Of a DNA stretch of 38,677 nucleotides, positions 11,340 to 22,808 are shown in pieces. Below the pieces are notes generated by a model that searched no databases, was not told the DNA's origin, and worked only from the letters and a program-made list of their open reading frames with translations. Each line of letters begins with the position of its first letter. The stretch's first letter is position 1. Source of the DNA: Clostridia bacterium (GTDB lineage: Bacteria > Bacillota > Thermoanaerobacteria > Thermoanaerobacterales > Thermoanaerobacteraceae). The DNA lies in NCBI GenBank assembly GCA_012840485.1, contig DULG01000049.1, positions 1 to 38,677 of the forward strand. Direction: 5' to 3'. The translations under genes and the position numbers were made by a program.

Positions 11340-12375
11340 TTGGGGACAATTCTTGAGAAGAAAAATTTATATATGATGGCTTTTGCATTACTTTTAAGCA
11401 TTGGTTCAATTTTAGTCTTGTTAAAAATTACAGGCGTTAAAGAAATTGAAATGGCTTTTCACATACCCCTTTTTTATCTTGGGGCGATTTTTGGCTTGAT
11501 AATATTGAGCTTGATAGTGGATACTTTGCGAATAAGGGATTTATTGAGAGAATTAGGAGAAAACTTGCCTTTTGATTATCTTTTTAAATTTAACCTTGCG
11601 ACTTTTTTTATAAGCTACATAACACCTTTTGGCTCAGGAGCTTTACCTCTCATTGTATATTTACTTAGTAAAAAAGGAGTTTCACCAAATAAAAGCTTAA
11701 TGATTTTTACTGCCAAGCTTTTGTTCTCAGGGATTTTTTTTTGGGACTGTGCCTCCTATATTACTTATTTTTTTTAGAAATCAATTAGAATTAGGAACTG
11801 TTCTTTCTTATTTTGCAGTGTTAGTAAGTATATTTTTGATGCTTTTGTTATTTATATTAATTTATATCATATTAAAACCCCGCTTTGTCATTGAGATTGT
11901 TAATAAAATAAGCAATATCTCGTTTTTTAAAAAGCCTAAACTGGAAAAGTATTTTGAAAAAATAAAAGAAGAAATCATACTTTATCATAAAAATTTTAAT
12001 GACCTTTTTATAGGGCCTTCCAGTTATAAGCTGTTTTTTTCTCAATTATTTTATGCAGTAGCTTATTGGTTGCTTTTTTACAGCATTGCTCCAGTTTTAT
12101 TATTAGCTATGAATATACATTTTAATTTGTTAGCAGTAATTGGAAGACAACTCATATTTTATGACATTTTGGCGTATAGTTTTATTCCAAGTGGTTCTGG
12201 TGTAGTAGAAATAGGTTTTGCAACAATTTTTTCAAATATACTTCCTCCCAGTAAATTAGGAATTTTTGTGGGCATGTGGAGGTTTTTTACTTATTATGTT
12301 TACTTGGGAATTTCGGCTATAGGATTTTTTATGGCAATAAAAAATCAAGATGCAAAGAGAATGTTAATTAAATAA
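11340..12375 (+). pseudogene. Flippase-like (LPG-synthase transmembrane domain, UPF0104) protein, frameshifted at a T9 run
   Basis: Two overlapping ORFs make one gene. The first (11340-11777, 145 residues, TTG start with GGGGG 7 nt upstream) carries the N-terminal helices and ends in an unrelated tail. The second (open from before 11749 to 12375) carries the remaining helices. Removing one T from the nine-T run at 11734-11742 joins them into a single 344-residue multi-helix protein (SGIFFGTVPPILL at the junction), the usual size of PF03706/TIGR00374 proteins. Recognisable features are ITPFGSGALP in the first half and FIPSGSGVVEIGF in the second. The family includes lysylphosphatidylglycerol flippase domains and glycolipid-associated membrane proteins. 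The shift may be a true mutation, a sequencing error, a phase-variable tract or a site of transcriptional slippage. The substrate is unknown. Confidence 0.8.
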
Positions 12376-12379
12376 CATT

Positions 12380-12396
12380 TTGGTACTAATTATCAT
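12380..12396. promoter_or_regulatory. Candidate enhancer site A of the glp operon
   Basis: TTGGTA-N5-TATCAT, a 17-bp imperfect palindrome matching 11 of 12 arm positions of the motif TTGRTA-N5-TAYCAA shared with site B and with the two sites before dhaK. Its start is 33 bp upstream of site B. Proposed target of the sigma-54 activator encoded at 18773-20407. Confidence 0.55.
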
Positions 12397-12409
12397 ACAG
12401 GAATAATAA

Positions 12410-12443
12410 CCTTTGATATTTTGTATCAAAGGGGTATTTTTTT
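12410..12443 (+). terminator. Terminator hairpin after the flippase gene, overlapping enhancer site B
   Basis: Perfect 9-bp stem CCTTTGATA (12410-12418) with TATCAAAGG (12424-12432), a 5-nt loop, then GGTA and a T-run (12436-12443). It can terminate the flippase transcript. Its core (12413-12429) is also the second copy of the TTGRTA-N5-TAYCAA palindrome, so the sequence probably has two roles. Confidence 0.7.
12413..12429. promoter_or_regulatory. Candidate enhancer site B of the glp operon
   Basis: TTGATA-TTTTG-TATCAA, a perfect palindrome in its arms. It matches dha site B (20427-20443) at 14 of 17 positions. Its 3' end is 41 bp before the GG of the -24 element, a normal distance for an enhancer-bound sigma-54 activator. 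Confidence 0.65.
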
Positions 12444-12467
12444 ATATGTATTTTTCAGGTTTATTTT

Positions 12468-12485
12468 TTGGCATATTACTTGCAT
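12468..12485 (+). promoter_or_regulatory. Sigma-54 (-24/-12) promoter of the glp operon
   Basis: TTGGCAT-ATTAC-TTGCAT, with GG at 12470-12471 and GC at 12482-12483, the required 12-bp separation. It agrees with the consensus TGGCAC-N5-TTGC except for T in place of the last C of TGGCAC. The predicted start is near 12495, giving a leader of only about 14 nt that still contains the GGGGG ribosome site of glpP. Confidence 0.82.
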
Positions 12486-12508
12486 AAAGAAAAGATGGGG
12501 GTATAAAA

Positions 12509-13078
12509 ATGAGAGAAAAGATTCTGGATGCAATGAGAGACTTCCCGATAATAGCTGCAGTGCGAGAGGCAAAAGATTTAAATACGGCTCTTTCTTCAAA
12601 TGCACAGGTGATATTTTTACTTACTGGTGACATAATGAACATTTCTGAAATAGTTCAAGAGGTCAAAAGACATGATAAAATTGTTTTTGTGCATTTTGAT
12701 TTGCTTGAAGGTTTAGGAAAGGACAACAAAGCAGTAGAGTATTTGGCTGAAAAAATAAAGCCACATGGTATAATCTCTACCCGCAATAATATTTTGATAC
12801 ACGCTAAACAATTTGATCTTTTCTGCATCCAGAGACTTTTCATTTTAGATTCCCAGGCATTAAAAACAGGGTTTGCTTCAACAAAACAAATAGTTCCAGA
12901 TGCAATAGAAGTAATGCCTGGGATAATTCCCTCAGTGATAAGTGAAATATCAGTAGATGTGCATCAACCAGTCATCGCAGGAGGTTTAGTCAAGACAAAA
13001 GAAGAAGTTATAAATGCACTTAAATCTGGAGCTATTGCCGTATCAACGAGTGAAAAAAATCTGTGGTTTATTGAGTGA
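12509..13078 (+). CDS. glpP: Glycerol uptake operon antiterminator GlpP
   Basis: 189 residues, full length for the GlpP family, a TIM-barrel-like RNA-binding regulator. Conserved stretches include PIIAAV near residue 13, the VFVHFDLLEG strand, GIISTR and the C-terminal GGLVKTKEEV and GAIAVSTS phosphate-binding loops. In Bacillus, GlpP with glycerol-3-phosphate binds the glpD leader RNA and stops premature termination. A strong terminator sits just before the dehydrogenase gene in this same cluster (15565-15607), so it likely acts there. First gene after the sigma-54 promoter. Confidence 0.94.
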   Translation: MREKILDAMRDFPIIAAVREAKDLNTALSSNAQVIFLLTGDIMNISEIVQEVKRHDKIVFVHFDLLEGLGKDNKAVEYLAEKIKPHGIISTRNNILIHAKQFDLFCIQRLFILDSQALKTGFASTKQIVPDAIEVMPGIIPSVISEISVDVHQPVIAGGLVKTKEEVINALKSGAIAVSTSEKNLWFIE

Positions 13079-13155
13079 AAGGAGGGTGAGAGACATAAAA
13101 ATTGAGTTTTAAAAAATAAAACTTAATAAATTTTGGAATCATGGAGGGATATTTT

Positions 13156-13887
13156 ATGAGTGACCTTGCAAAATATGTTGCTGAATTTTTTGGTACGATG
13201 ATACTTATATGGTTAGGTGATGGCGTGGTTGCAAACGTTGTCTTAAATAAATCTAAAGGGCAAAACAGCGGTTGGATTGTAATCACCGCGGGATGGGGAT
13301 TTGCAGTAATGGTAGGAGCGTATACAGTTGGGTGGATAAGTGGTGCTCACTTAAATCCAGCTGTGACAATTGGCTTAGCAACGATAGGCAAGTTTTCATG
13401 GAGTTTGGTGCCAGGCTATATTATAGCGCAAGTTTTAGGAGCTTTTGTGGGAGCTATAATTGTTTATTTGATGTACATGGATCATTATGCAGCAACTGAA
13501 GATCCCACAGCTAAGCTTGGTACTTTTGCAACTATTCCAGCTATAAGAAAGTTGGGTAAGAATTTTATGACAGAGGCATTTGGTACTGCTATGCTTTTAA
13601 TAGGAATACTGGGTATAACAAATGGCAACAATCAATTAGTTGGAGGATTAGGACCGCTTCTAATTGGTTTACTTATTTGGGCAATAGGGTTAAGCTTAGG
13701 TGGACCTACAGGTTATGCAATTAATCCAGCAAGAGACTTTGGACCAAGGCTTGCTCATGCTATTCTTCCTATCCCAGGGAAAGGAGATTCTGATTGGGGA
13801 TATGGTTTGATAGTTCCAATATTTGGGCCAATAGTTGGAGGAATACTTGGAGCTGTAGTTTACCAGCTTATTATGAGTATACACTAA
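13156..13887 (+). CDS. glpF: Glycerol facilitator (aquaglyceroporin) GlpF
   Basis: 243 residues with six predicted helices and the two NPA boxes HLNPAVT and AINPARDFGPR. The aspartate after the second NPAR marks the glycerol-conducting rather than the water-only branch. It lets glycerol enter by diffusion for trapping by GlpK, encoded next. The start at 13156 is preferred over 13141, because GGAGGG (13143-13148) sits 7 nt before it and would lie inside the gene if the earlier ATG were used. Confidence 0.95.
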   Translation: MSDLAKYVAEFFGTMILIWLGDGVVANVVLNKSKGQNSGWIVITAGWGFAVMVGAYTVGWISGAHLNPAVTIGLATIGKFSWSLVPGYIIAQVLGAFVGAIIVYLMYMDHYAATEDPTAKLGTFATIPAIRKLGKNFMTEAFGTAMLLIGILGITNGNNQLVGGLGPLLIGLLIWAIGLSLGGPTGYAINPARDFGPRLAHAILPIPGKGDSDWGYGLIVPIFGPIVGGILGAVVYQLIMSIH

Positions 13888-13909
13888 TACAAAAGTTTAA
13901 AGAGTTTAA

Positions 13910-13936
13910 ATCGGCGAGAATTTATCTCTCGCCGAT
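13910..13936 (+). other. Stem-loop between glpF and glpK
   Basis: ATCGGCGAGA (13910-13919) pairs exactly with TCTCGCCGAT (13927-13936) around a 7-nt loop. There is no T-run after it, so it is not a standard terminator. It ends 33 nt before glpK and may set the relative stability of the glpF and glpK segments of the mRNA. Confidence 0.6.
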
Positions 13937-13957
13937 ATGATATTATAAAAATTGTAA

Positions 13958-15463
<1,506 letters not shown>

Positions 15464-15564
15464 AATAAAAAATTGATAAAAAGTAGCAGGAATTTTAAGA
15501 TGTTTGTAGAATATATTTATTAAAGAGAAGAAAAAATAAATATGAGTATGGTGGAGATTTGGAG

Positions 15565-15607
15565 AACCATATATAGCCGACAGGGGTCGGTTATATATGG
15601 TTTTTTT
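15565..15607 (+). terminator. Leader terminator before the glycerol-3-phosphate dehydrogenase gene, probable GlpP target
   Basis: A 14-bp stem (15567-15580 with 15587-15600; one G-U pair) around the loop CAGGGG is followed by T7 (15601-15607). It ends only 18 nt before the ATG of the next gene and would block dehydrogenase expression unless antiterminated. In Bacillus the glpD leader has the same arrangement and GlpP relieves it. glpP is in this operon, which makes regulated readthrough likely. Confidence 0.85.
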
Positions 15608-15625
15608 ATCTTTTAAGGAGGTTTT

Positions 15626-17134
15626 ATGACTATGAAAGAAATGTACGATGTTTTGATAATAGGTGCTGGAGTGGTTGGATGTTCAATTGCGAGAGAACTT
15701 TCAAAATACAAATTAAAAATATTAGTTGTAGAAAAAGGTGAAGATGTGGCTTCGGAAGGAGCTTCTAAAGCTAATAGTGCAATACTACATGCGGGTTATG
15801 ACCCTGTACCTGGTACTTTAAAAGCTATGCTGAATGTCAGAGGAAATGAAATGTACGATGAGTTGTGTAAAGATTTGGATGTTCCAATAAAGAGAACAGG
15901 TTCTTTAGTTGTGGCTTTTTCTGAAGAAGAGGTAAAAGAGCTCTATGAATTGTTTGATAGAGGAATAAAAAATGGTGTCAAAGGGTTGTCTCTCATTACA
16001 AAAGATATGGTCAAAGAGATAGAACCACACATAAATGACACTGTAGTTGCTGCTTTGTATGCCAAAACAGCAGGAATAATATGTCCTTATGGATATACTA
16101 TTGCAGTGGCAGAAAATGCTGCACAAAATGGAGCAGAATTTGTTTTTAATTCAGAAGTAATTGATATCAAAAAAAATGGGGACTTCTTTATAGTAAAAAC
16201 TCACAAAGAAGAATTTTACAGTAAATATGTTGTCAATGCTGCAGGACTTTATTCAGATGTCATAAATAACATGGTAGGGGCGAAGCCATTTTCTGTGCAT
16301 CCTAGAAAAGGAGAATATTTGATATTAGATAAAGACCAAGGATATCTTGCAAGGACAGTAATATTCCAGGTTCCAACTAAAATGGGTAAAGGAATACTAG
16401 TTTCTCCTACAGTTGATGGAAATCTATTGATAGGACCTACTTCAGAAGACATACAAGATAAAGAATTTAAAGCAACTACCAGAGAAGGGCTCAATAAAGC
16501 AATTACAGTTGCAAAAAGAAGTGTGGATAAATTTGATGTCAGAAAGACTATCACTCAGTTTACAGGACTTAGAGCGACTCCTGATACAGAAGACAAAGAC
16601 TTTATAATTGGAGAATCTGATGTGAAAGGATTTATAAATGCTGCTGGAATAGAATCTCCTGGTTTTACTGCAGCTCCTGCTATCGCTGAAATGATAAGGG
16701 ATATACTTAAAGATGCTGGACTTCAGTTGATTGAAAAAGTAGATTTTAACCCAAAAAGAAAACCAGTCATAAGATTTACTGAACTTTCAGACGAGGAAAG
16801 AAACAAGCTTATAAAAGAAAATCCTGCTTATGGAAGAATAATATGCAGATGTGAGACAGTGACGGAAGGAGAGATAATAGATGCGATAAGAAGACCTGTA
16901 GGTGCAAAATCTTTAGATGGTGTTAAAAGGCGTGTAAGAGCTGGAATGGGAAGATGCCAGGGAAGTTTTTGTGGGCCGAGAGTTGTTGAAATATTAGCAA
17001 GAGAACTTAATATTTCTCCTCTTGAGGTTACAAAGCATGGAAGAAATTCGAATATACTAACTGCAGAGACAAAAAAATTTTTATTAGAAAAAGCATCGGA
17101 GGTTTTAAAGAAAGAGGTGTATGAGAATGCTTAA
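15626..17134 (+). CDS. glpA: Anaerobic glycerol-3-phosphate dehydrogenase, FAD subunit with BFD-type iron-sulphur domain
   Basis: 502 residues. Residues 9-35 form the FAD-binding Rossmann motif IIGAGVVGCSIAREL. The DAO-type oxidoreductase domain extends to about 365. The C-terminal BFD-like [2Fe-2S] domain has cysteines C407, C409, C444 and C449. This is the GlpA-like layout, oxidising glycerol-3-phosphate to dihydroxyacetone phosphate. It overlaps the next oxidoreductase gene by 14 nt and is followed by a DUF1667 gene, a trio also known next to glpK in Thermotoga. An alternative start is the ATG at 15632, 10 nt from AAGGAGG. Expression is likely GlpP-dependent. Confidence 0.88.
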   Translation: MTMKEMYDVLIIGAGVVGCSIARELSKYKLKILVVEKGEDVASEGASKANSAILHAGYDPVPGTLKAMLNVRGNEMYDELCKDLDVPIKRTGSLVVAFSEEEVKELYELFDRGIKNGVKGLSLITKDMVKEIEPHINDTVVAALYAKTAGIICPYGYTIAVAENAAQNGAEFVFNSEVIDIKKNGDFFIVKTHKEEFYSKYVVNAAGLYSDVINNMVGAKPFSVHPRKGEYLILDKDQGYLARTVIFQVPTKMGKGILVSPTVDGNLLIGPTSEDIQDKEFKATTREGLNKAITVAKRSVDKFDVRKTITQFTGLRATPDTEDKDFIIGESDVKGFINAAGIESPGFTAAPAIAEMIRDILKDAGLQLIEKVDFNPKRKPVIRFTELSDEERNKLIKENPAYGRIICRCETVTEGEIIDAIRRPVGAKSLDGVKRRVRAGMGRCQGSFCGPRVVEILARELNISPLEVTKHGRNSNILTAETKKFLLEKASEVLKKEVYENA

Positions 17135-18386
17135 CTATGATATAGTCATAATAGGTGGCGGCCCTGCAGGCTTGGGTGCTGCTGTAGAAGCCTATGAAAA
17201 GGGTGTAAAAAATATAGTCATAATTGAAAGAGATAAATATCTTGGGGGTATTTTAGAGCAGTGCATACACAATGGATTTGGACTTCAGGAATTTAAAGAA
17301 GAATTGACAGGACCAGAATATGCACAAAGATTCATTGATAAAGTAGAAGAATATGACATAAATGTAATGTTGGAAACTATGGTTTTGGAAATAACTCCTG
17401 ATAGAATTGTAAAAGCTGTTAATTCTAAGGAAGGTGTGTTCACAATAAAAGCTGGAGCTATAATTTTAGCTATGGGATGCAGGGAAAGGCCGAGAGGTGC
17501 TATTATGATACCTGGCACTCGCCCAGCAGGTATTCTCACAGCAGGTACTGCTCAGAGGTATGTAAATATGGAAGGATATCTTCCAGGGAAAGAAATAGTG
17601 ATATTAGGTTCTGGTGATGTTGGGCTTATTATGGCGAGAAGGCTTACATTAGAAGGAGCAAAAGTCAAAGCAGTTGTAGAACTCATGCCTTACTCTAGTG
17701 GACTTACAAGAAACATCGTTCAGTGTTTAGAGGACTTTAATATTCCTCTTCTTTTAAGTCACACTGTCATTGAAATTCACGGCAAAGACAGGGTAGAAGG
17801 AGTTACAATTGCCAAAGTTGATGAAAATAGAGAGCCAATTATGGAGACTGCACAGTATATAAGTTGTGATACGTTAATACTTTCTGTTGGCTTGATTCCT
17901 GAAAATGAGCTCTCTCAAAAGGCCGGTATAGAGCTAGACCCTATAACAGGAGGACCTATTGTAAATGAAATGTTAGAAACAAGTGTTCCTGGAATTTTTG
18001 CTTGTGGCAATGTCCTTCAAGTTCACGACTTAGTTGACAATGTTACTGCAGAAGCGAGATTGGCAGCTAATTCAGCAATACGATTTATTCGAGAAGGTGA
18101 ATTTGGAAAAAGCAATATTGCCGTAAAAGCTGGTAATGGCATACGTTATGTTGTTCCGCAAAAGATAAATGTAGATAACATAGAAAAAAGGATAAAATTC
18201 AGAATGAGACCTGTTAACGTTTATAACAATGCTATGTTAGCAGTAAAGTCAGGAGACAAATATTTACTAAGACAAAAAAGGCAGCGCTTAACCCCTGGTG
18301 AAATGATTGATGTAAATTTAAGTAAAGACATACTAAAAAATGCAAATCTTGAAGAAGGTATTGTCTTTTTAGTTGAGGAGGGATAA
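17121..18386 (+). CDS. FAD/NAD(P)-dependent oxidoreductase, second subunit of the glycerol-3-phosphate dehydrogenase module
   Basis: 421 residues with two dinucleotide-binding motifs: IIGGGPAGLGAA at the N-terminus (FAD) and ILGSGDVGLIMARRL in the middle (NAD(P)). It also has AMGCRERPR and the FACGNVLQVHDLVD segment that closes the FAD site. There is no CxxxxC redox disulphide, so it is not a thioredoxin reductase. It overlaps the GlpA-like gene by 14 nt and almost certainly forms a complex with it, passing electrons to a soluble or pyridine-nucleotide acceptor rather than quinone; that electron route is inference. An alternative start is the ATG at 17127. Confidence 0.87.
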   Translation: MRMLNYDIVIIGGGPAGLGAAVEAYEKGVKNIVIIERDKYLGGILEQCIHNGFGLQEFKEELTGPEYAQRFIDKVEEYDINVMLETMVLEITPDRIVKAVNSKEGVFTIKAGAIILAMGCRERPRGAIMIPGTRPAGILTAGTAQRYVNMEGYLPGKEIVILGSGDVGLIMARRLTLEGAKVKAVVELMPYSSGLTRNIVQCLEDFNIPLLLSHTVIEIHGKDRVEGVTIAKVDENREPIMETAQYISCDTLILSVGLIPENELSQKAGIELDPITGGPIVNEMLETSVPGIFACGNVLQVHDLVDNVTAEARLAANSAIRFIREGEFGKSNIAVKAGNGIRYVVPQKINVDNIEKRIKFRMRPVNVYNNAMLAVKSGDKYLLRQKRQRLTPGEMIDVNLSKDILKNANLEEGIVFLVEEG

Positions 18387-18387
18387 A

Positions 18388-18753
18388 ATGGAACTAAAAG
18401 AAATTACATGCATAGTTTGCCCCTTGGGCTGCAGGATACAAGTTGAAATGGAAGGAGGGGAGATAAAAAGCGTAAAGGGATATTCTTGTTCTAGAGGATT
18501 AGAATATGCTAAAAATGAAGTTACTATGCCTAAAAGGACTATTACTACAAGTGTGAGAGCAATAGGGGGACATCTTCCACTCTTATCTGTTAGGACAAAA
18601 GAGCCTGTTCCAAAAGAAAAGATACAAGAAATAATGCTTGAATTGGCTAAGGTAGAGGTTAAAGCTCCTGTAAAAATAGGAGATGTAGTGGTGAAGAACA
18701 TTTTAGGTACGGGGGTTGACATAATTGCTACAAGAAACCTCTATGTAAAATAA
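18388..18753 (+). CDS. DUF1667 cysteine-rich protein, third subunit of the dehydrogenase module
   Basis: 121 residues. The N-terminus has C8, C11 and C15 (TCIVCPLGC) and a fourth cysteine C34 (YSCSRG), a likely metal or iron-sulphur site. The rest matches the DUF1667 pattern with RTITTSVRAIGG. These proteins regularly accompany the two upstream flavoproteins and are probably an electron-transfer or assembly subunit. The ATG at 18388 is chosen because GAGGAGGG lies 5 nt upstream; the earlier in-frame TTG at 18373 would place that site inside the gene. The stop of the previous gene is one base before this ATG. Confidence 0.85.
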   Translation: MELKEITCIVCPLGCRIQVEMEGGEIKSVKGYSCSRGLEYAKNEVTMPKRTITTSVRAIGGHLPLLSVRTKEPVPKEKIQEIMLELAKVEVKAPVKIGDVVVKNILGTGVDIIATRNLYVK

Positions 18754-18772
18754 GTTTTTGCGTGGTGATAAA

Positions 18773-20407
18773 ATGGAGGGAAGAAGGGAAATATTAAGAA
18801 CTCCTGTGAGTATCCATTCTCAGATTGCTGCCCATATTGTTCAAAAGGTTAGTCACATAAGCAGACAAAACAATGTAAGCATATTTTTAAGGAAGATAAA
18901 TGACAATAGGTTGATTCCTGCAAATAGTATGTTATCAATGGTGACTTTTTTTGCTTCTCGGGGAGAAGAAATAGAAGTAGTGGTAGAAGGAGCAAATGTG
19001 GACAATGCTATAAAAGAGTTTAAAGGCTTTTTTTACAACGAGTTAGGGAAAGAAAAGGAAGAAAAAACTACTTATGAACTTTTAAAAAATACCTCAATAG
19101 CCTATGAGAAAATATTTAATTCTATTGGCTCAGGACTTATAGTTACTGATGAAAATGGGGCAATAATGATTTTTAACAAAGCAGCTGAAAGTATTACAGG
19201 GATTAATATGGACCAGGCTATAGGGAAAAAAATACAAGAAGTGATGTCAGATATAAAAATTGCTGATGTGTTAAAAACTGGCAAAGAAGAGATGAATAAA
19301 AAACTAAAAATAGGCACAAATGTGGTGTTAACAAATATAACACCTATTTATACAGGTACAAAAATAGAAGGGGCGGTTATAGTATTTTATGACTTCCCTC
19401 AAATAGAATATTTGGAAAATGAGCTGAAAAGAGATAGAAAACTTGACAAAGCTTTTGACATAATAATAGGCAATAGCGGAAAATTAAAAGACGCTCTTAC
19501 TATTGCTTCTAAAGCTGCAGAAACTGATTCAACAGTCCTCATAAGAGGGGAAAGCGGAACGGGGAAAGAGCTGGTGGCTAATGCGATACATTACGCCAGT
19601 AAGAGAAAGGATAAACCATTTATAAGGGTAAATTGTGCGGCTATTCCTGTGACTCTATTGGAGAGTGAACTTTTTGGGCATGAAAGAGGAGCTTTTACTG
19701 GAGCTGTAACTCAAAAGATAGGAAAATTCGAATTAGCAGATGGAGGAACGATATTTCTTGATGAAATAGGAGATATTCCACCTGAGATTCAGGTAAAGCT
19801 TTTGAGAGTGATTCAAGAAAAGGAATTTGAAAGAGTAGGGGGAATAAAAACTATAAAAGTAGATGTGAGGATAATCGCTGCGACAAATAAAGATTTAGAA
19901 AAAGCAATAAAAGAGGGGACTTTTAGAGAAGATTTATACTATAGATTAAACGTTATACCTGTGATTTTGCCTCCATTAAGGGAAAGAAGAGGAGATATTC
20001 CTCTACTTGTCGAACATTTTATAGAAAAGCTGAACAAAAAACTAAACAAAAATGTAAAAAAGATTACGAAAAAAGCTATGCAAGCATTGATATATTATGA
20101 TTGGCCTGGGAATATACGAGAATTAGAAAATATAATTGAAAGGTGTATAACATTAAGTGATACTGATTACATCGATTATGAAGATTTGCCCCAATATATT
20201 CGAAATGAAACTACTACTGTATCAGATGATGATATTATTTATCTTGGAGAAAATAGTGAGCTACTTACAATGGAGGAATATGAGTATAAAATAATAAAGG
20301 CTGCGATACAAAGATATAAAAGCTTTAATAAAGCAGGAAAAGTTTTAGGACTTACCCATAAAACTATTGCTGCAAAAGCAAGGAAATTTGGACTTGTTGA
20401 TAGATAA
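18773..20407 (+). CDS. Sigma-54-dependent activator with HPr-like, PAS, AAA+ and Fis-type HTH domains
   Basis: 544 residues from the ATG at 18773 (an in-frame TTG at 18758 lacks a ribosome site). Residues 8-92 resemble the PTS protein HPr: H15 occupies the place of the HPr phosphorylation histidine and S52 that of the HPr regulatory serine, though the ARP after the histidine reads SQI. Residues 112-215 are a PAS domain. Residues 230-460 are the AAA+ domain with Walker A GESGTGKE (259-266) and the sigma-54 contact loop GAFTGA (306-311). Residues 518-541 are a helix-turn-helix. It is last in the glp operon and 140 nt before dhaK. Sigma-54 promoters with shared palindromes precede both units, so it probably controls both, sensing glycerol/DHA metabolism or PTS phosphate flow. 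Confidence 0.93.
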   Translation: MEGRREILRTPVSIHSQIAAHIVQKVSHISRQNNVSIFLRKINDNRLIPANSMLSMVTFFASRGEEIEVVVEGANVDNAIKEFKGFFYNELGKEKEEKTTYELLKNTSIAYEKIFNSIGSGLIVTDENGAIMIFNKAAESITGINMDQAIGKKIQEVMSDIKIADVLKTGKEEMNKKLKIGTNVVLTNITPIYTGTKIEGAVIVFYDFPQIEYLENELKRDRKLDKAFDIIIGNSGKLKDALTIASKAAETDSTVLIRGESGTGKELVANAIHYASKRKDKPFIRVNCAAIPVTLLESELFGHERGAFTGAVTQKIGKFELADGGTIFLDEIGDIPPEIQVKLLRVIQEKEFERVGGIKTIKVDVRIIAATNKDLEKAIKEGTFREDLYYRLNVIPVILPPLRERRGDIPLLVEHFIEKLNKKLNKNVKKITKKAMQALIYYDWPGNIRELENIIERCITLSDTDYIDYEDLPQYIRNETTTVSDDDIIYLGENSELLTMEEYEYKIIKAAIQRYKSFNKAGKVLGLTHKTIAAKARKFGLVDR

Positions 20408-20413
20408 TACCAA
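20397..20413. promoter_or_regulatory. Candidate enhancer site A of the dha operon
   Basis: TTGATA-GATAA-TACCAA, a full match to the motif TTGRTA-N5-TAYCAA. It overlaps the stop codon of the activator gene. Its start is exactly 30 bp upstream of site B, close to three helical turns. Confidence 0.65.
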
Positions 20414-20426
20414 AAGAAATAAATAG

Positions 20427-20443
20427 TTGATACTTTTTACCAA
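20427..20443. promoter_or_regulatory. Candidate enhancer site B of the dha operon
   Basis: TTGATA-CTTTT-TACCAA. Same arms as site A and 14 of 17 bases identical to glp site B. Its 3' end is 50 bp before the GG of the -24 element. A less regular inverted repeat (AAGATAGTC/GGCTATTCTT) follows at 20442-20465 and may end the activator transcript. Confidence 0.65.
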
Positions 20444-20490
20444 GATAGTCTTTCGAGGCTATTCTTTATTGTATGTTTGCTACAATTTAT

Positions 20491-20508
20491 TTGGCACGTA
20501 AATTGCAT
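20491..20508 (+). promoter_or_regulatory. Sigma-54 (-24/-12) promoter of dhaKLM
   Basis: TTGGCACGTAAATTGCAT, with GG at 20493-20494 and GC at 20505-20506, 12 bp apart. This is a near-perfect match to TGGCAC-N5-TTGCA. The predicted start is near 20518, giving a 30-nt leader with the GGAGGAGG ribosome site of dhaK. Confidence 0.93.
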
Positions 20509-20547
20509 TTAAAAACTAACAAAAGTAAATTTAGGAGGAGGTAAATT

Positions 20548-21546
20548 ATGAAAAAGTTGATTAATAATCCTAATGATGTCGTGAAAGAAATGATAGAAGG
20601 TTTGCTGGCTGCTCACCCATCTTACCTGAGAAAACTTGACAACATAGATGTAATTGTCAGAAAAGACGCACCTGTAGAAGGAAAAGTTGGACTTGTAAGT
20701 GGTGGTGGCAGTGGCCATGAGCCTGCTCATGCAGGATATGTGGGCTATGGAATGTTAGATGCGGCTTGCCCTGGTGCTGTCTTTACTTCACCTACACCTG
20801 ACCAAATTTATGAAGCGATTAAGGCAGTGGATGGAGGAAAAGGAGTATTATTGATTATTAAAAATTACACAGGTGACGTAATGAATTTTGAAATGGCTAG
20901 AGAAATGGCACAGATGGAGGGAATAGAAGTAGATGAAGTGATAGTGAACGATGATGTTGCAGTAGAAAATAGCACTTGGACGCAGGGAAGGCGTGGCATT
21001 GCTGGAACTGTTTTTGTTCACAAAATTGCTGGTGCAAAGGCACAAGAAGGGGCTAGCTTACAAGAAGTAAAAAGAGTAGCTGAGAAAGTAATTGCAAATG
21101 TAAGGTCAATGGGAATGGCACTAACACCCTGTACTGTTCCAGCAGCAGGGAAACCCAGCTTTACTCTTGCAGAAGATGAGATGGAGATTGGTATAGGAAT
21201 ACATGGAGAGCCTGGAACTCACAGAGAAAAAATAAAACCTGCAGATGAAATAGTAGAACATTTAATGGAGAAAATAATAAATGACCTGCCTTATAAAGAA
21301 AATGACGAGGTTGCTGTTATGATAAACGGGCTTGGTGCAACTCCTTTAATGGAACTTTATGTTGCGAACAGGAAAGTAGCAGAAATCTTAGAGAGTAAGA
21401 AGATCAAAGTTTACAAAACATACGTAGGAGAATTTATGACCTCTCTTGAAATGAGTGGATTTTCTATAACATTATTAAAATTAGATGAAGAACTTAAAAC
21501 ATTGTTAGATGCAAAGGCTGATACACCTGCTTTCAAACAATTATAA
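20548..21546 (+). CDS. dhaK: PTS-dependent dihydroxyacetone kinase, substrate-binding subunit DhaK
   Basis: 332 residues, full length. It shows the GGGSGHEPAHAG loop (52-63) and H219 in GIGIHGEPGTHR, the residue that binds dihydroxyacetone covalently as a hemiaminal. DhaK receives phosphate from the ADP bound in DhaL and yields dihydroxyacetone phosphate. GGAGGAGG precedes the ATG. First gene after the sigma-54 promoter. Together with the glp genes it channels glycerol and DHA into glycolysis. Confidence 0.96.
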   Translation: MKKLINNPNDVVKEMIEGLLAAHPSYLRKLDNIDVIVRKDAPVEGKVGLVSGGGSGHEPAHAGYVGYGMLDAACPGAVFTSPTPDQIYEAIKAVDGGKGVLLIIKNYTGDVMNFEMAREMAQMEGIEVDEVIVNDDVAVENSTWTQGRRGIAGTVFVHKIAGAKAQEGASLQEVKRVAEKVIANVRSMGMALTPCTVPAAGKPSFTLAEDEMEIGIGIHGEPGTHREKIKPADEIVEHLMEKIINDLPYKENDEVAVMINGLGATPLMELYVANRKVAEILESKKIKVYKTYVGEFMTSLEMSGFSITLLKLDEELKTLLDAKADTPAFKQL

Positions 21547-21564
21547 ATTTTTAGGAGGTAGAAG

Positions 21565-22203
21565 ATGGTTATCACAAAAAATGATGTCCTAAAAATTGTG
21601 GACAAAATTGTAGAGGTTATAAAAGAAAATAAAGAGTACCTTACAGAGTTGGATGCTGCTATTGGTGATGCGGACCACGGAATAAATTTAGATAGAGGAT
21701 TTGATGCCGTAAAGCAAAAATTGACCACATTGCCTGAAACTACTGATATAGGGACAATATTAAAAACTATAGGCATGACACTTGTATCTACGGTGGGAGG
21801 AGCTTCTGGTCCTTTATATGGTACAGCTTTTATGAGGGCTGGCCAAGTAGTTCAGGGTAAAAATGAACTTTCTGAAGAGGATATAGTTAAAATCTTTGAA
21901 GCTGCTTTAGATGGCATCAAACAAAGAGGAAAAGCCGAAGCAGGAGACAAGACTATGATAGATTCTATTGAACCTGCATATAAAGCTTTAAAAGATAGTT
22001 TAGAGAACAACATTGCATTACCTGAAGCATTAAATAGAGCAGCTAATGCTGCAAAAGAGGGAATGGAATACACTAAGAATATTTCTGCAAGAAAAGGAAG
22101 AGCAAGTTACTTAGGAGAAAGAAGTATTGGACACTTAGATCCAGGGGCAACATCAGCATATTTGATGATAAAGTCTTTTTCTGATGTTGTCAATTTATCA
22201 TGA
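21565..22203 (+). CDS. dhaL: PTS-dependent dihydroxyacetone kinase, ADP-binding subunit DhaL
   Basis: 212 residues. The nucleotide and magnesium site is seen in D30 and GDADHG (34-39), followed by the GGASGPLYGTAF helix segment and the C-terminal GHLDPGATS. DhaL keeps ADP as a tightly bound cofactor, rephosphorylated by DhaM. Clear AGGAGG site; 18 nt after dhaK. Its stop lies just before the dhaM ribosome site. Confidence 0.96.
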   Translation: MVITKNDVLKIVDKIVEVIKENKEYLTELDAAIGDADHGINLDRGFDAVKQKLTTLPETTDIGTILKTIGMTLVSTVGGASGPLYGTAFMRAGQVVQGKNELSEEDIVKIFEAALDGIKQRGKAEAGDKTMIDSIEPAYKALKDSLENNIALPEALNRAANAAKEGMEYTKNISARKGRASYLGERSIGHLDPGATSAYLMIKSFSDVVNLS

Positions 22204-22217
22204 TGGTGGAGGAAAAA

Positions 22218-22610
22218 ATGGTTGGAATAGTGTTAGTCTCTCACTCAAGAAAAATAGTAGAGGGGATTTATGAACTTGCAAGCCAAATGACAGGTGGAAA
22301 AGTTCCTATAGGGATAGCTGGCGGGACACAAGATGGCAGATTGGGAACAGATGCTACAGAGATAATGGAGGAAATTAAAAAAGTAGACGAGGGAGAAGGA
22401 GTAGTAGTTTTAGTTGATATTGGAAGTGCTGTAATGAGTGCGCAAATGGCGATAGAACTCCTGGGAGAGGAATATGAAGGTAAAGTAAAAATTGCTGATG
22501 CACCTTTAGTGGAGGGAGCAATTGCAGCTAGTGTAGAGGCTTCTATAGGTAGTGATTTTGATAAAGTTCTTTTAGTGGCAGAAGAAGCAAAAAAACTTAA
22601 TAAATTTTAA
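22218..22610 (+). CDS. dhaM: PTS-dependent dihydroxyacetone kinase, phosphotransfer subunit DhaM (EIIA domain only)
   Basis: 130 residues, only the mannose-type EIIA domain. H9 in LVSHSRKI is the phosphoryl-accepting histidine; GGTQDGRLGT and LVDIGSAVMSAQ are conserved. Enterobacterial DhaM carries extra HPr and EI-like domains; none are present here, so phosphate must come from general HPr. The ATG at 22218 is preferred over 22200, because GGAGG (22208-22212) is 5 nt before it and the earlier ATG has no site. Confidence 0.94.
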   Translation: MVGIVLVSHSRKIVEGIYELASQMTGGKVPIGIAGGTQDGRLGTDATEIMEEIKKVDEGEGVVVLVDIGSAVMSAQMAIELLGEEYEGKVKIADAPLVEGAIAASVEASIGSDFDKVLLVAEEAKKLNKF

Positions 22611-22618
22611 TATTTTTG

Positions 22619-22647
22619 AGTCTGGACAAAATCCAGACTTAGTTTTT
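22619..22647 (+). terminator. Intrinsic terminator of dhaKLM
   Basis: AGTCTGGA (22619-22626) pairs perfectly with TCCAGACT (22632-22639) around CAAAA, followed by TAGTTTTT. Confidence 0.9.
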
Positions 22648-22808
22648 GTGTAGAATTTTTACTCAAAAGGTATTAAAATAAAAACATAAGGAGGTGATGG
22701 AATACGTCATTTTTAAATATTTATGATGTATACGATAACAACCTAAAAGAATTTATAGAAAAGGAGGATTATATAAATGCTTATTGGTATGTTTTTCAGC
22801 AAAAAAGT

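What the first reader, a model, noticed from the sequence alone, without database searches (positions are those of the whole stretch)
12380..20508. Two sigma-54 promoters share a tandem 17-bp palindrome, TTGRTA-N5-TAYCAA, defining a glycerol/DHA regulon
The glp promoter (12468-12485) and the dha promoter (20491-20508) each have two upstream palindromes: 12380-12396 and 12413-12429; 20397-20413 and 20427-20443. Site starts are 33 and 30 bp apart, about three helical turns, and the proximal sites end 41 and 50 bp from the GG. glp site B and dha site B agree at 14 of 17 positions. The only sigma-54 activator seen lies between the two units, so it probably binds these sites, controls dhaKLM and autoregulates its own operon. 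Sigma-54 control of glp genes differs from the sigma-A plus GlpP scheme of Bacillus.
Basis: partly seen in the sequence, partly recalled or inferred. Interest (0 to 1): 0.88.

Follow-up and report, generated by a model that had tools for sequence, protein, structure and literature searches.

The report
PTS-linked activator's glycerol–dihydroxyacetone regulon
In a Thermoanaerobacter genome, the genes for using glycerol and dihydroxyacetone share matching pairs of conserved DNA sites next to sigma-54-type promoters, and one neighbouring activator protein, which carries a phosphocarrier-like (HPr) domain, is likely to bind these sites and would tie both pathways to the cell's sugar-phosphate relay.

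Summary
Both promoters match the sigma-54 consensus; three of the four palindromes match TTGRTA-N5-TAYCAA exactly and glp site A has one mismatch, shared by relatives. A composite "palindrome plus sigma-54 element" pattern, run blind on 398 phylum genomes, found 17 places: 16 lie directly upstream of glpP or dhaK, and the reversed control found none. In 37 class genomes all 37 matches lie there, in exactly the 19 genomes that hold dhaK and the activator. The window's genome has rpoN. The activator has HPr, PAS, AAA+ and HTH domains. Elsewhere its HPr-bearing relatives sit beside ptsI or ptsH, with the same palindrome at a sigma-54 element.
Two corrections. GlpP control is not replaced: glpP is the operon's first gene, and a conserved antiterminator/terminator candidate precedes glpA. 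And this is the only such activator in the window, not in the genome.
Known already: a sigma-54 activator group (DhaQ) of dhaKLM and ptsI in Clostridium, and HPr-domain activators. Apparently new: the glycerol operon in the regulon, its paired-site promoter across families, and two-layer control. DNA binding and the HPr domain's role are untested.

The parts
12380..12396 (.). glp upstream site A, TTGGTACTAATTATCAT (1 mismatch; the final T is kept in relatives that have the site)
   Evidence: not found in G018 and G022, where the DNA upstream of site B differs (one search shows this for L012, the record with the contig length of G022's)
12413..12429 (.). glp upstream site B, exact palindrome; in this genome its flanks also make a terminator-like hairpin (12410-12432)
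12468..12485 (+). sigma-54 (-24/-12) promoter element of the glp operon; start near 12495 predicted
12509..13078 (+). glpP, glycerol-3-phosphate responsive antiterminator, first gene of the operon
   Evidence: PF04309, 230 bits
13141..13887 (+). glpF, glycerol facilitator (MIP family)
   Evidence: PF00230
13970..15463 (+). glpK, glycerol kinase
   Evidence: TIGR01311 above cut-off
15547..15605 (+). candidate GlpP-responsive element: possible antiterminator helix 15547-15552 with 15566-15571, overlapping terminator hairpin 15562-15605 followed by a T-rich stretch
   Evidence: no Rfam match
15626..17134 (+). glpA-like FAD oxidoreductase (glycerol-3-phosphate dehydrogenase/oxidase family) with BFD [2Fe-2S] domain
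   Evidence: best NCBIfam models below their cut-offs
17121..18386 (+). FAD/NAD(P) oxidoreductase of the glp operon
   Evidence: PF07992
18373..18753 (+). DUF1667 protein of the glp operon
   Evidence: PF07892
18758..20407 (+). sigma-54 activator, HPr-PAS-AAA+-HTH (start probably the ATG at 18773)
   Evidence: PF00381, PF00989, PF00158, PF18024; GAFTGA present
18797..19033 (+). HPr-like domain of the activator; its conserved His is residue 20 (codon 18815-18817)
   Evidence: modelled fold matches HPr
20270..20395 (+). HTH (DNA-binding) domain of the activator
   Evidence: PF18024 residues 505-546; recognition region conserved
20397..20413 (.). dha upstream site A, exact palindrome, overlapping the activator's stop codon
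20427..20443 (.). dha upstream site B, exact palindrome
20491..20508 (+). sigma-54 promoter element of dhaKLM; start near 20518 predicted
20548..21546 (+). dhaK
   Evidence: TIGR02363 above cut-off
21565..22203 (+). dhaL
   Evidence: TIGR02365 above cut-off
22200..22610 (+). dhaM (EIIA-type phosphoryl donor; that it takes phosphate from HPr in known systems is recalled)
   Evidence: TIGR02364 above cut-off
22616..22642 (+). terminator-like hairpin after dhaM

Best explanation
The sigma-54-type promoters at 12468 and 20491 and their TTGRTA-N5-TAYCAA sites are conserved together with the HPr-PAS-AAA+-HTH activator gene that lies between the two units, and this activator is predicted to bind the sites and to switch on dhaKLM and the glpP-glpF-glpK-glpA operon that ends with its own gene. 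Shown by sequence: the sites, their fixed 17-bp layout, the sigma-54 elements, an intact rpoN, the domain order, the invariant HPr-type histidine, and co-occurrence across families. Inferred: the activator would bind the tandem sites as dimers on one face of the DNA, contact sigma-54 polymerase by looping, and so autoregulate. Inferred with less support: the HPr-like domain would report the phosphorylation state of the PTS relay (EI, HPr, DhaM), so that the regulon answers dihydroxyacetone flux or PTS sugar supply. Also inferred: GlpP with glycerol-3-phosphate would add a second gate, reading through the terminator before glpA.
Against: No binding, footprint or expression data. Pairs are not universal: with up to 1 mismatch, 13 of 18 glpP regions have two sites, 3 one and 2 (G035, G036) none; 11 of 19 dhaK regions have two and 8 one; the six dhaK regions outside the class (leaving L019 aside) have one. 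3 of 27 HPr-PAS genomes (G057, G100, G263) have a sigma-54 element but no palindrome with up to 1 mismatch, and 1 (G386) is cut off. The genome has ten other PF00158 matches. In G017, G020 and G024 the activator's frame is broken within or just behind the HPr domain, and in G018, G023 and G024 the rpoN frame is split, yet sites remain. The window's HPr domain has Gln where HPr has its active-site Arg, the Ser46 equivalent is Ala in 6 of 26 rows, and a sequence search found no PDB chain at E up to 0.01. G091 has the glp sites but an activator without HPr.
Confidence: 0.78

Rival explanations
1. The activator does bind these sites, but it is switched by a ligand in its PAS domain or by binding DhaK or DhaL, as E. 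coli DhaR is, and the HPr-like domain is only structural or a leftover.
For: PAS above cut-off; Foldseek lists E. coli DhaR(N)-DhaK and DhaR(N)-DhaL complexes among matches of the HPr-PAS model; Arg to Gln near the histidine in the window's branch; an HPr-less activator in G091 keeps glp sites.
Against: His kept in 26 of 26 rows; the relatives beside ptsI or ptsH have no dhaK in the fetched stretches, so DhaK or DhaL is unlikely to be the general signal.
Confidence: 0.33
2. Another of the genome's sigma-54 activators binds the palindromes.
For: 11 PF00158 matches in the genome.
Against: The palindrome follows this activator across families and across different neighbour genes; the 18 class genomes without a strong match to this activator lack the composite element.
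Confidence: 0.06
3. The palindromes are RNA hairpins (terminators) and not protein sites.
For: glp site B has 3 further pairing flank bases and a T-rich stretch behind it, and is listed as terminator-like.
Against: No flank base pairs at 40 of 59 sites in the class regions, among them both dha sites of the window; dha site A overlaps the activator's stop codon; the spacer is fixed. A double role at glp site B is possible.
Confidence: 0.03
4. The units are read from sigma-A promoters and the sigma-54 elements are leftovers, as broken rpoN or activator frames in some relatives would suggest.
For: Split frames in G017, G018, G020, G023, G024.
Against: In the window's genome both genes are intact; sigma-70-like sites are no more frequent than in shuffles (37 against 35.8); promoter elements are kept across families.
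Confidence: 0.05

Closest known systems
DhaQ group of sigma-54 activators, Clostridiales (Nie et al. 2019, PMC6615313; abstract, parts 1 and 2 of the main text with Table 1, and passages seen)
   Same: Sigma-54 activator whose listed targets are dhaKLM and ptsI; Clostridium loci fetched here with an HPr-bearing activator sit beside a ptsI-like gene (L017, L018, L020) or dhaKLM (L019), with the palindrome at a sigma-54 element (exact at the three ptsI loci, 1 mismatch at L019).
   Different: The paper's table gives no glp target and the words glycerol, glpK and Thermoanaerobacter do not occur in its main text. Its motif is in a figure and a supplement that I could not read, so identity of motif is not tested.
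HPr-domain sigma-54 activators of Clostridia (Francke et al. 2011, PMC3162934, passages; it cites Reizer et al. 1999, not read)
   Same: HPr signal domain on a sigma-54 activator.
   Different: The words glycerol and dhaK do not occur in its main text.
Bacillus subtilis GlpP antitermination (PMC9604022, abstract and passages)
   Same: GlpP with glycerol-3-phosphate; terminator before the controlled gene.
   Different: In B. subtilis the element lies in the 5' leader behind the promoter; here the predicted leader is about 14 nt and the candidate element lies between glpK and glpA.
E. coli DhaR (recalled, and a PMC3162934 passage)
   Same: Activator of dhaKLM with an AAA+ domain of the sigma-54 activator type.
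   Different: DhaR has become sigma-54 independent; this protein keeps GAFTGA and its promoter is of sigma-54 type.
DctD activated by dephospho-IIAGlc (PMC9040800, PMC11077940, search listing only)
   Same: A PTS protein sets the state of a sigma-54 activator.
   Different: There by a separate IIA protein; here the PTS-like domain is part of the activator.

Membership tests
sigma-54 bacterial enhancer-binding proteins | AAA+ sigma-54 interaction domain with GAFTGA | tested here: met
   PF00158 255 bits; GAFTGA in the frame
sigma-54 bacterial enhancer-binding proteins | C-terminal HTH DNA-binding domain | tested here: met
   PF18024 above cut-off
sigma-54 bacterial enhancer-binding proteins | genome encodes sigma-54, and putative targets have -24/-12 elements with upstream sites | tested here: met
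sigma-54 bacterial enhancer-binding proteins | ATP-driven open-complex formation | not testable with these tools
   needs in vitro transcription
DhaQ group (Nie 2019) | dhaKLM as target | tested here: inconclusive
   sites and sigma-54 element before dhaK; control itself not measured
DhaQ group (Nie 2019) | ptsI as target | tested here: inconclusive
   no palindrome with up to 2 mismatches in 300 bp before ptsH of the window's genome; ptsI itself not located
DhaQ group (Nie 2019) | same upstream motif | not testable with these tools
   motif only in a figure and supplement
HPr (PTS phosphocarrier) domain | HPr sequence profile | tested here: met
   PF00381 36.4 bits, cut-off 23
HPr (PTS phosphocarrier) domain | HPr fold | tested here: met
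HPr (PTS phosphocarrier) domain | active-site His15 | tested here: met
   His in 26 of 26 rows with the domain
HPr (PTS phosphocarrier) domain | active-site Arg17 | tested here: not met
   Gln in the window's protein and 13 other rows, Arg in 12; so I claim HPr-like, not a working phosphocarrier
GlpP antitermination | GlpP protein | tested here: met
   PF04309 230 bits
GlpP antitermination | conditional terminator before a target gene | tested here: inconclusive
   hairpin plus T-rich stretch before glpA and a competing helix with changes on both sides at 2 of 6 pairs; termination not measured
E. coli DhaR type | loss of sigma-54 dependence | tested here: not met
   GAFTGA and sigma-54 elements present

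The most novel reading that the evidence does not exclude
The activator is itself a station of the PTS relay: its HPr domain exchanges phosphate with EI or DhaM, so that one protein reads the phosphate drain caused by dihydroxyacetone kinase and sets, through one 17-bp operator, either glycerol plus dihydroxyacetone genes or, in other lineages, the genes of EI and HPr, while GlpP gates the second half of the glycerol operon.
Probability: 0.4. Interest if true: 0.75.

Novelty: new variant of a known kind. Interest (0 to 1): 0.57.

Why it matters
It would give a defined operator and a defined target set to a family of HPr-bearing sigma-54 activators that I found described only in genome surveys, put glycerol catabolism of several anaerobe families under sigma-54, and offer a natural case in which promoter control (sigma-54, PTS signal) and antitermination (GlpP, glycerol-3-phosphate) act in series on one operon. 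The steps can be tested with a few bench experiments.

Tried and rejected
Palindrome alone as evidence: rejected, because up to 2 mismatches it is at chance level in the window. Terminator reading of the palindromes: rejected as the general explanation. Sigma-70 promoters: not above shuffles. Rfam: no match in 12300-22800 at E up to 1. PDB sequence search with the HPr part: no match. The antiterminator regex was not found in the 18 stretches fetched around more distant glpP genes (L250-L267), nor in L236, so it is tied to this operon type and not shown to be general for GlpP; L298-L310 were not scanned for it. ptsH of the window's genome: no upstream palindrome. No HPr chain is among the 50 rows listed by Foldseek for the HPr-PAS model; HPr chains appeared in the second look at Foldseek's own matches. 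Literature: searches listed no paper whose title, abstract start or passages seen report glp genes under a sigma-54 activator of this kind; supplements could not be opened, so this is not proof of absence.

Rows set aside: the other PF00158 matches were compared by sequence only, not studied; one search lists only part of its 86 sites (all 6 exact ones are listed);'s 43 elements 30 were examined;'s 210 genomes with some match I counted the 27 whose listed match spans HPr and PAS (that list is cut, sorted by E-value, and at most 7 candidates per genome were scored); the other 71 of 80 loci (L021-L091) were not used beyond the tblastn look.
Full report
Place. The window's activator is 92-98% identical (best segment) to proteins of Thermoanaerobacter records and 86% to one of Caldanaerobacter. 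Gene order on the + strand: glpP, glpF, glpK, glpA-like, an FAD/NAD oxidoreductase, DUF1667, the activator, then dhaK, dhaL, dhaM.

Observation. Three sites are exact; glp site A ends in T instead of A, and relatives that have the site (up to 1 mismatch) keep the T. The palindrome alone is cheap in AT-rich DNA, so the test is placement. In the window's genome three of six exact palindromes sit before these two promoters and the other three lie inside reading frames; of the sigma-54 elements examined (30 of 43) only these two have palindromes within 150 bp upstream.

Conservation in the class. I took the upstream regions of dhaK in 19 genomes and of glpP in 18, the window's own included (the glpP locus of G028 lies on another contig and was not in this set). 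Every region has a sigma-54 element with at most one mismatch. At dhaK, all 19 have at least one site with at most one mismatch (11 have two); at glpP, 16 of 18 have an exact site B (13 have two sites with at most one mismatch), and G035 and G036 have only sites with two mismatches. Where two sites are present they start 30-33 bp apart, 24 of 24. Spacer 5 is the only one that occurs. A composite pattern (sigma-54 element, 35-65 or 66-96 bp, palindrome) gave 24 and 13 matches in 37 genomes, each directly upstream of glpP or dhaK, with none for the reversed control; the 19 genomes with a match are those with dhaK and with a strong match to the activator's N-terminal part. One of the 18 genomes without a match, G019, belongs to the window's own genus; it has no dhaK match at E up to 1e-80 and only a weak PAS match to the activator part. 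Of the thirteen more distant genomes G001-G013 none has more than a PAS match to that part, 12 have a glpP match, and none has the composite element.

Blind test in the phylum. The first composite pattern in 398 genomes gave 17 places in 16 genomes and none in the control. Nine places are class members already seen. Eight lie outside the class; 7 of them are upstream of glpP or dhaK in clusters with glp genes and an activator, the eighth (G399) had none of the query genes in 19.5 kb. In six of these seven clusters the other promoter, not used to find them, also carries a palindrome with up to one mismatch and a sigma-54 element with one mismatch (G302, G404, G208, G279) or two (G325, G232); in G091 no dhaK lies in the fetched stretches. 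The dhaK promoters of these six have a single site; their glp sites, and those of G091, are 32 or 41-42 bp apart where two were seen (the second with two mismatches in G302), close to three or four helical turns, and one site only was seen in G404.

Second layer. The predicted 5' leader is about 14 nt, too short for an attenuator, but before glpA lies TGG-N-GGAGA-n-GAGA-N-CC followed by a strong hairpin and T-rich stretch. It occurs once in each of 25 loci of this operon type (window, L167-L184, L237-L242). The CCA arm can pair either back (helix 15547-15552 with 15566-15571) or forward into the terminator. In ten aligned sequences the backward helix is 90% paired; cells with a change on both sides number 8 against 3.3 in shuffles (0 of 500 reach it) and the covariation score is 0.267 against 0.135. 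Against it: the number of pairs with such a change (2) is reached by 311 of 500 shuffles, the number of further pair types is below the shuffles, three of the six pairs never vary, and a slide by 2 columns still scores 0.237. The rows were picked by hand and relatives are among them. Read as a GlpP target this is inference; Rfam has no such family in the stretch.

Mechanism. Most likely the activator binds the sites, meets sigma-54 polymerase by looping and turns on dhaKLM and, through the glp promoter, the operon that holds its own gene. Sites lying about 250 bp further upstream at dhaK in G018, G024 and G025 would be tolerated under looping. Which signal the HPr domain reads is open. PTS state is my first choice because DhaM belongs to the PTS relay (recalled) and because relatives sit at ptsI or ptsH; a DhaR-like control by DhaK or DhaL, or a PAS ligand, is the main rival.

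What is known. PMC6615313 (parts 1 and 2 of 6 and passages read) lists DhaQ, targets dhaKLM and ptsI, in Acetobacterium, Clostridium and Geosporobacter, and PTS-HPr among the sensor domains of activators; glycerol, glpK and Thermoanaerobacter do not occur in its main text. PMC3162934 (passages) notes HPr-type activators in Clostridia. PMC6510779 (passages) predicts sigma-54 control of dhaKLM in C. beijerinckii and reports no growth effect on glycerol plates for its sigma-54 mutant; PMC12316311 (passage) names dihydroxyacetone kinase under sigma-54 in Clostridia. PMC9604022 (passages) describes GlpP-controlled leaders of B. subtilis. I therefore call this a new variant of a known kind.

Noticed in passing
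window 15547-15605; L167-L184, L237-L242: Conserved TGG-N-GGAGA-n-GAGA-N-CC element with terminator hairpin before glpA, a candidate GlpP binding site without Rfam match in the window.
   Followed up: partly
G017, G020, G024 (L167, L169, L173): Activator reading frame broken within or just behind the HPr domain; in G018, G023 and G024 the rpoN frame is split. The sigma-54 system may be decaying in part of the genus, or these are assembly errors.
   Followed up: no
L168, L173, L174 upstream of dhaK: The palindromes lie about 250 bp further from the sigma-54 element than in the other members of the genus, as if DNA had been inserted.
   Followed up: no
L301, L305, L307-L310: HPr-bearing activators beside an HPr gene (ptsI-like gene behind it in L301, L305, L308), with one to three palindromes, mostly TTGGTA-N5-TACCAA, upstream of a sigma-54 element.
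   Followed up: partly
L017, L018, L020 (Clostridium): HPr-bearing activator divergent from a ptsI-like gene, with TTGATA-N5-TATCAA at a sigma-54 element.
   Followed up: partly
G018 C1:2274129-2275106, G021 C70:17125-18102: A second dhaK-like gene, 54-55% identical to the window's.
   Followed up: no
L236 (G091): Same glp promoter architecture but an activator without HPr domain and no dhaK in the fetched stretches.
   Followed up: partly
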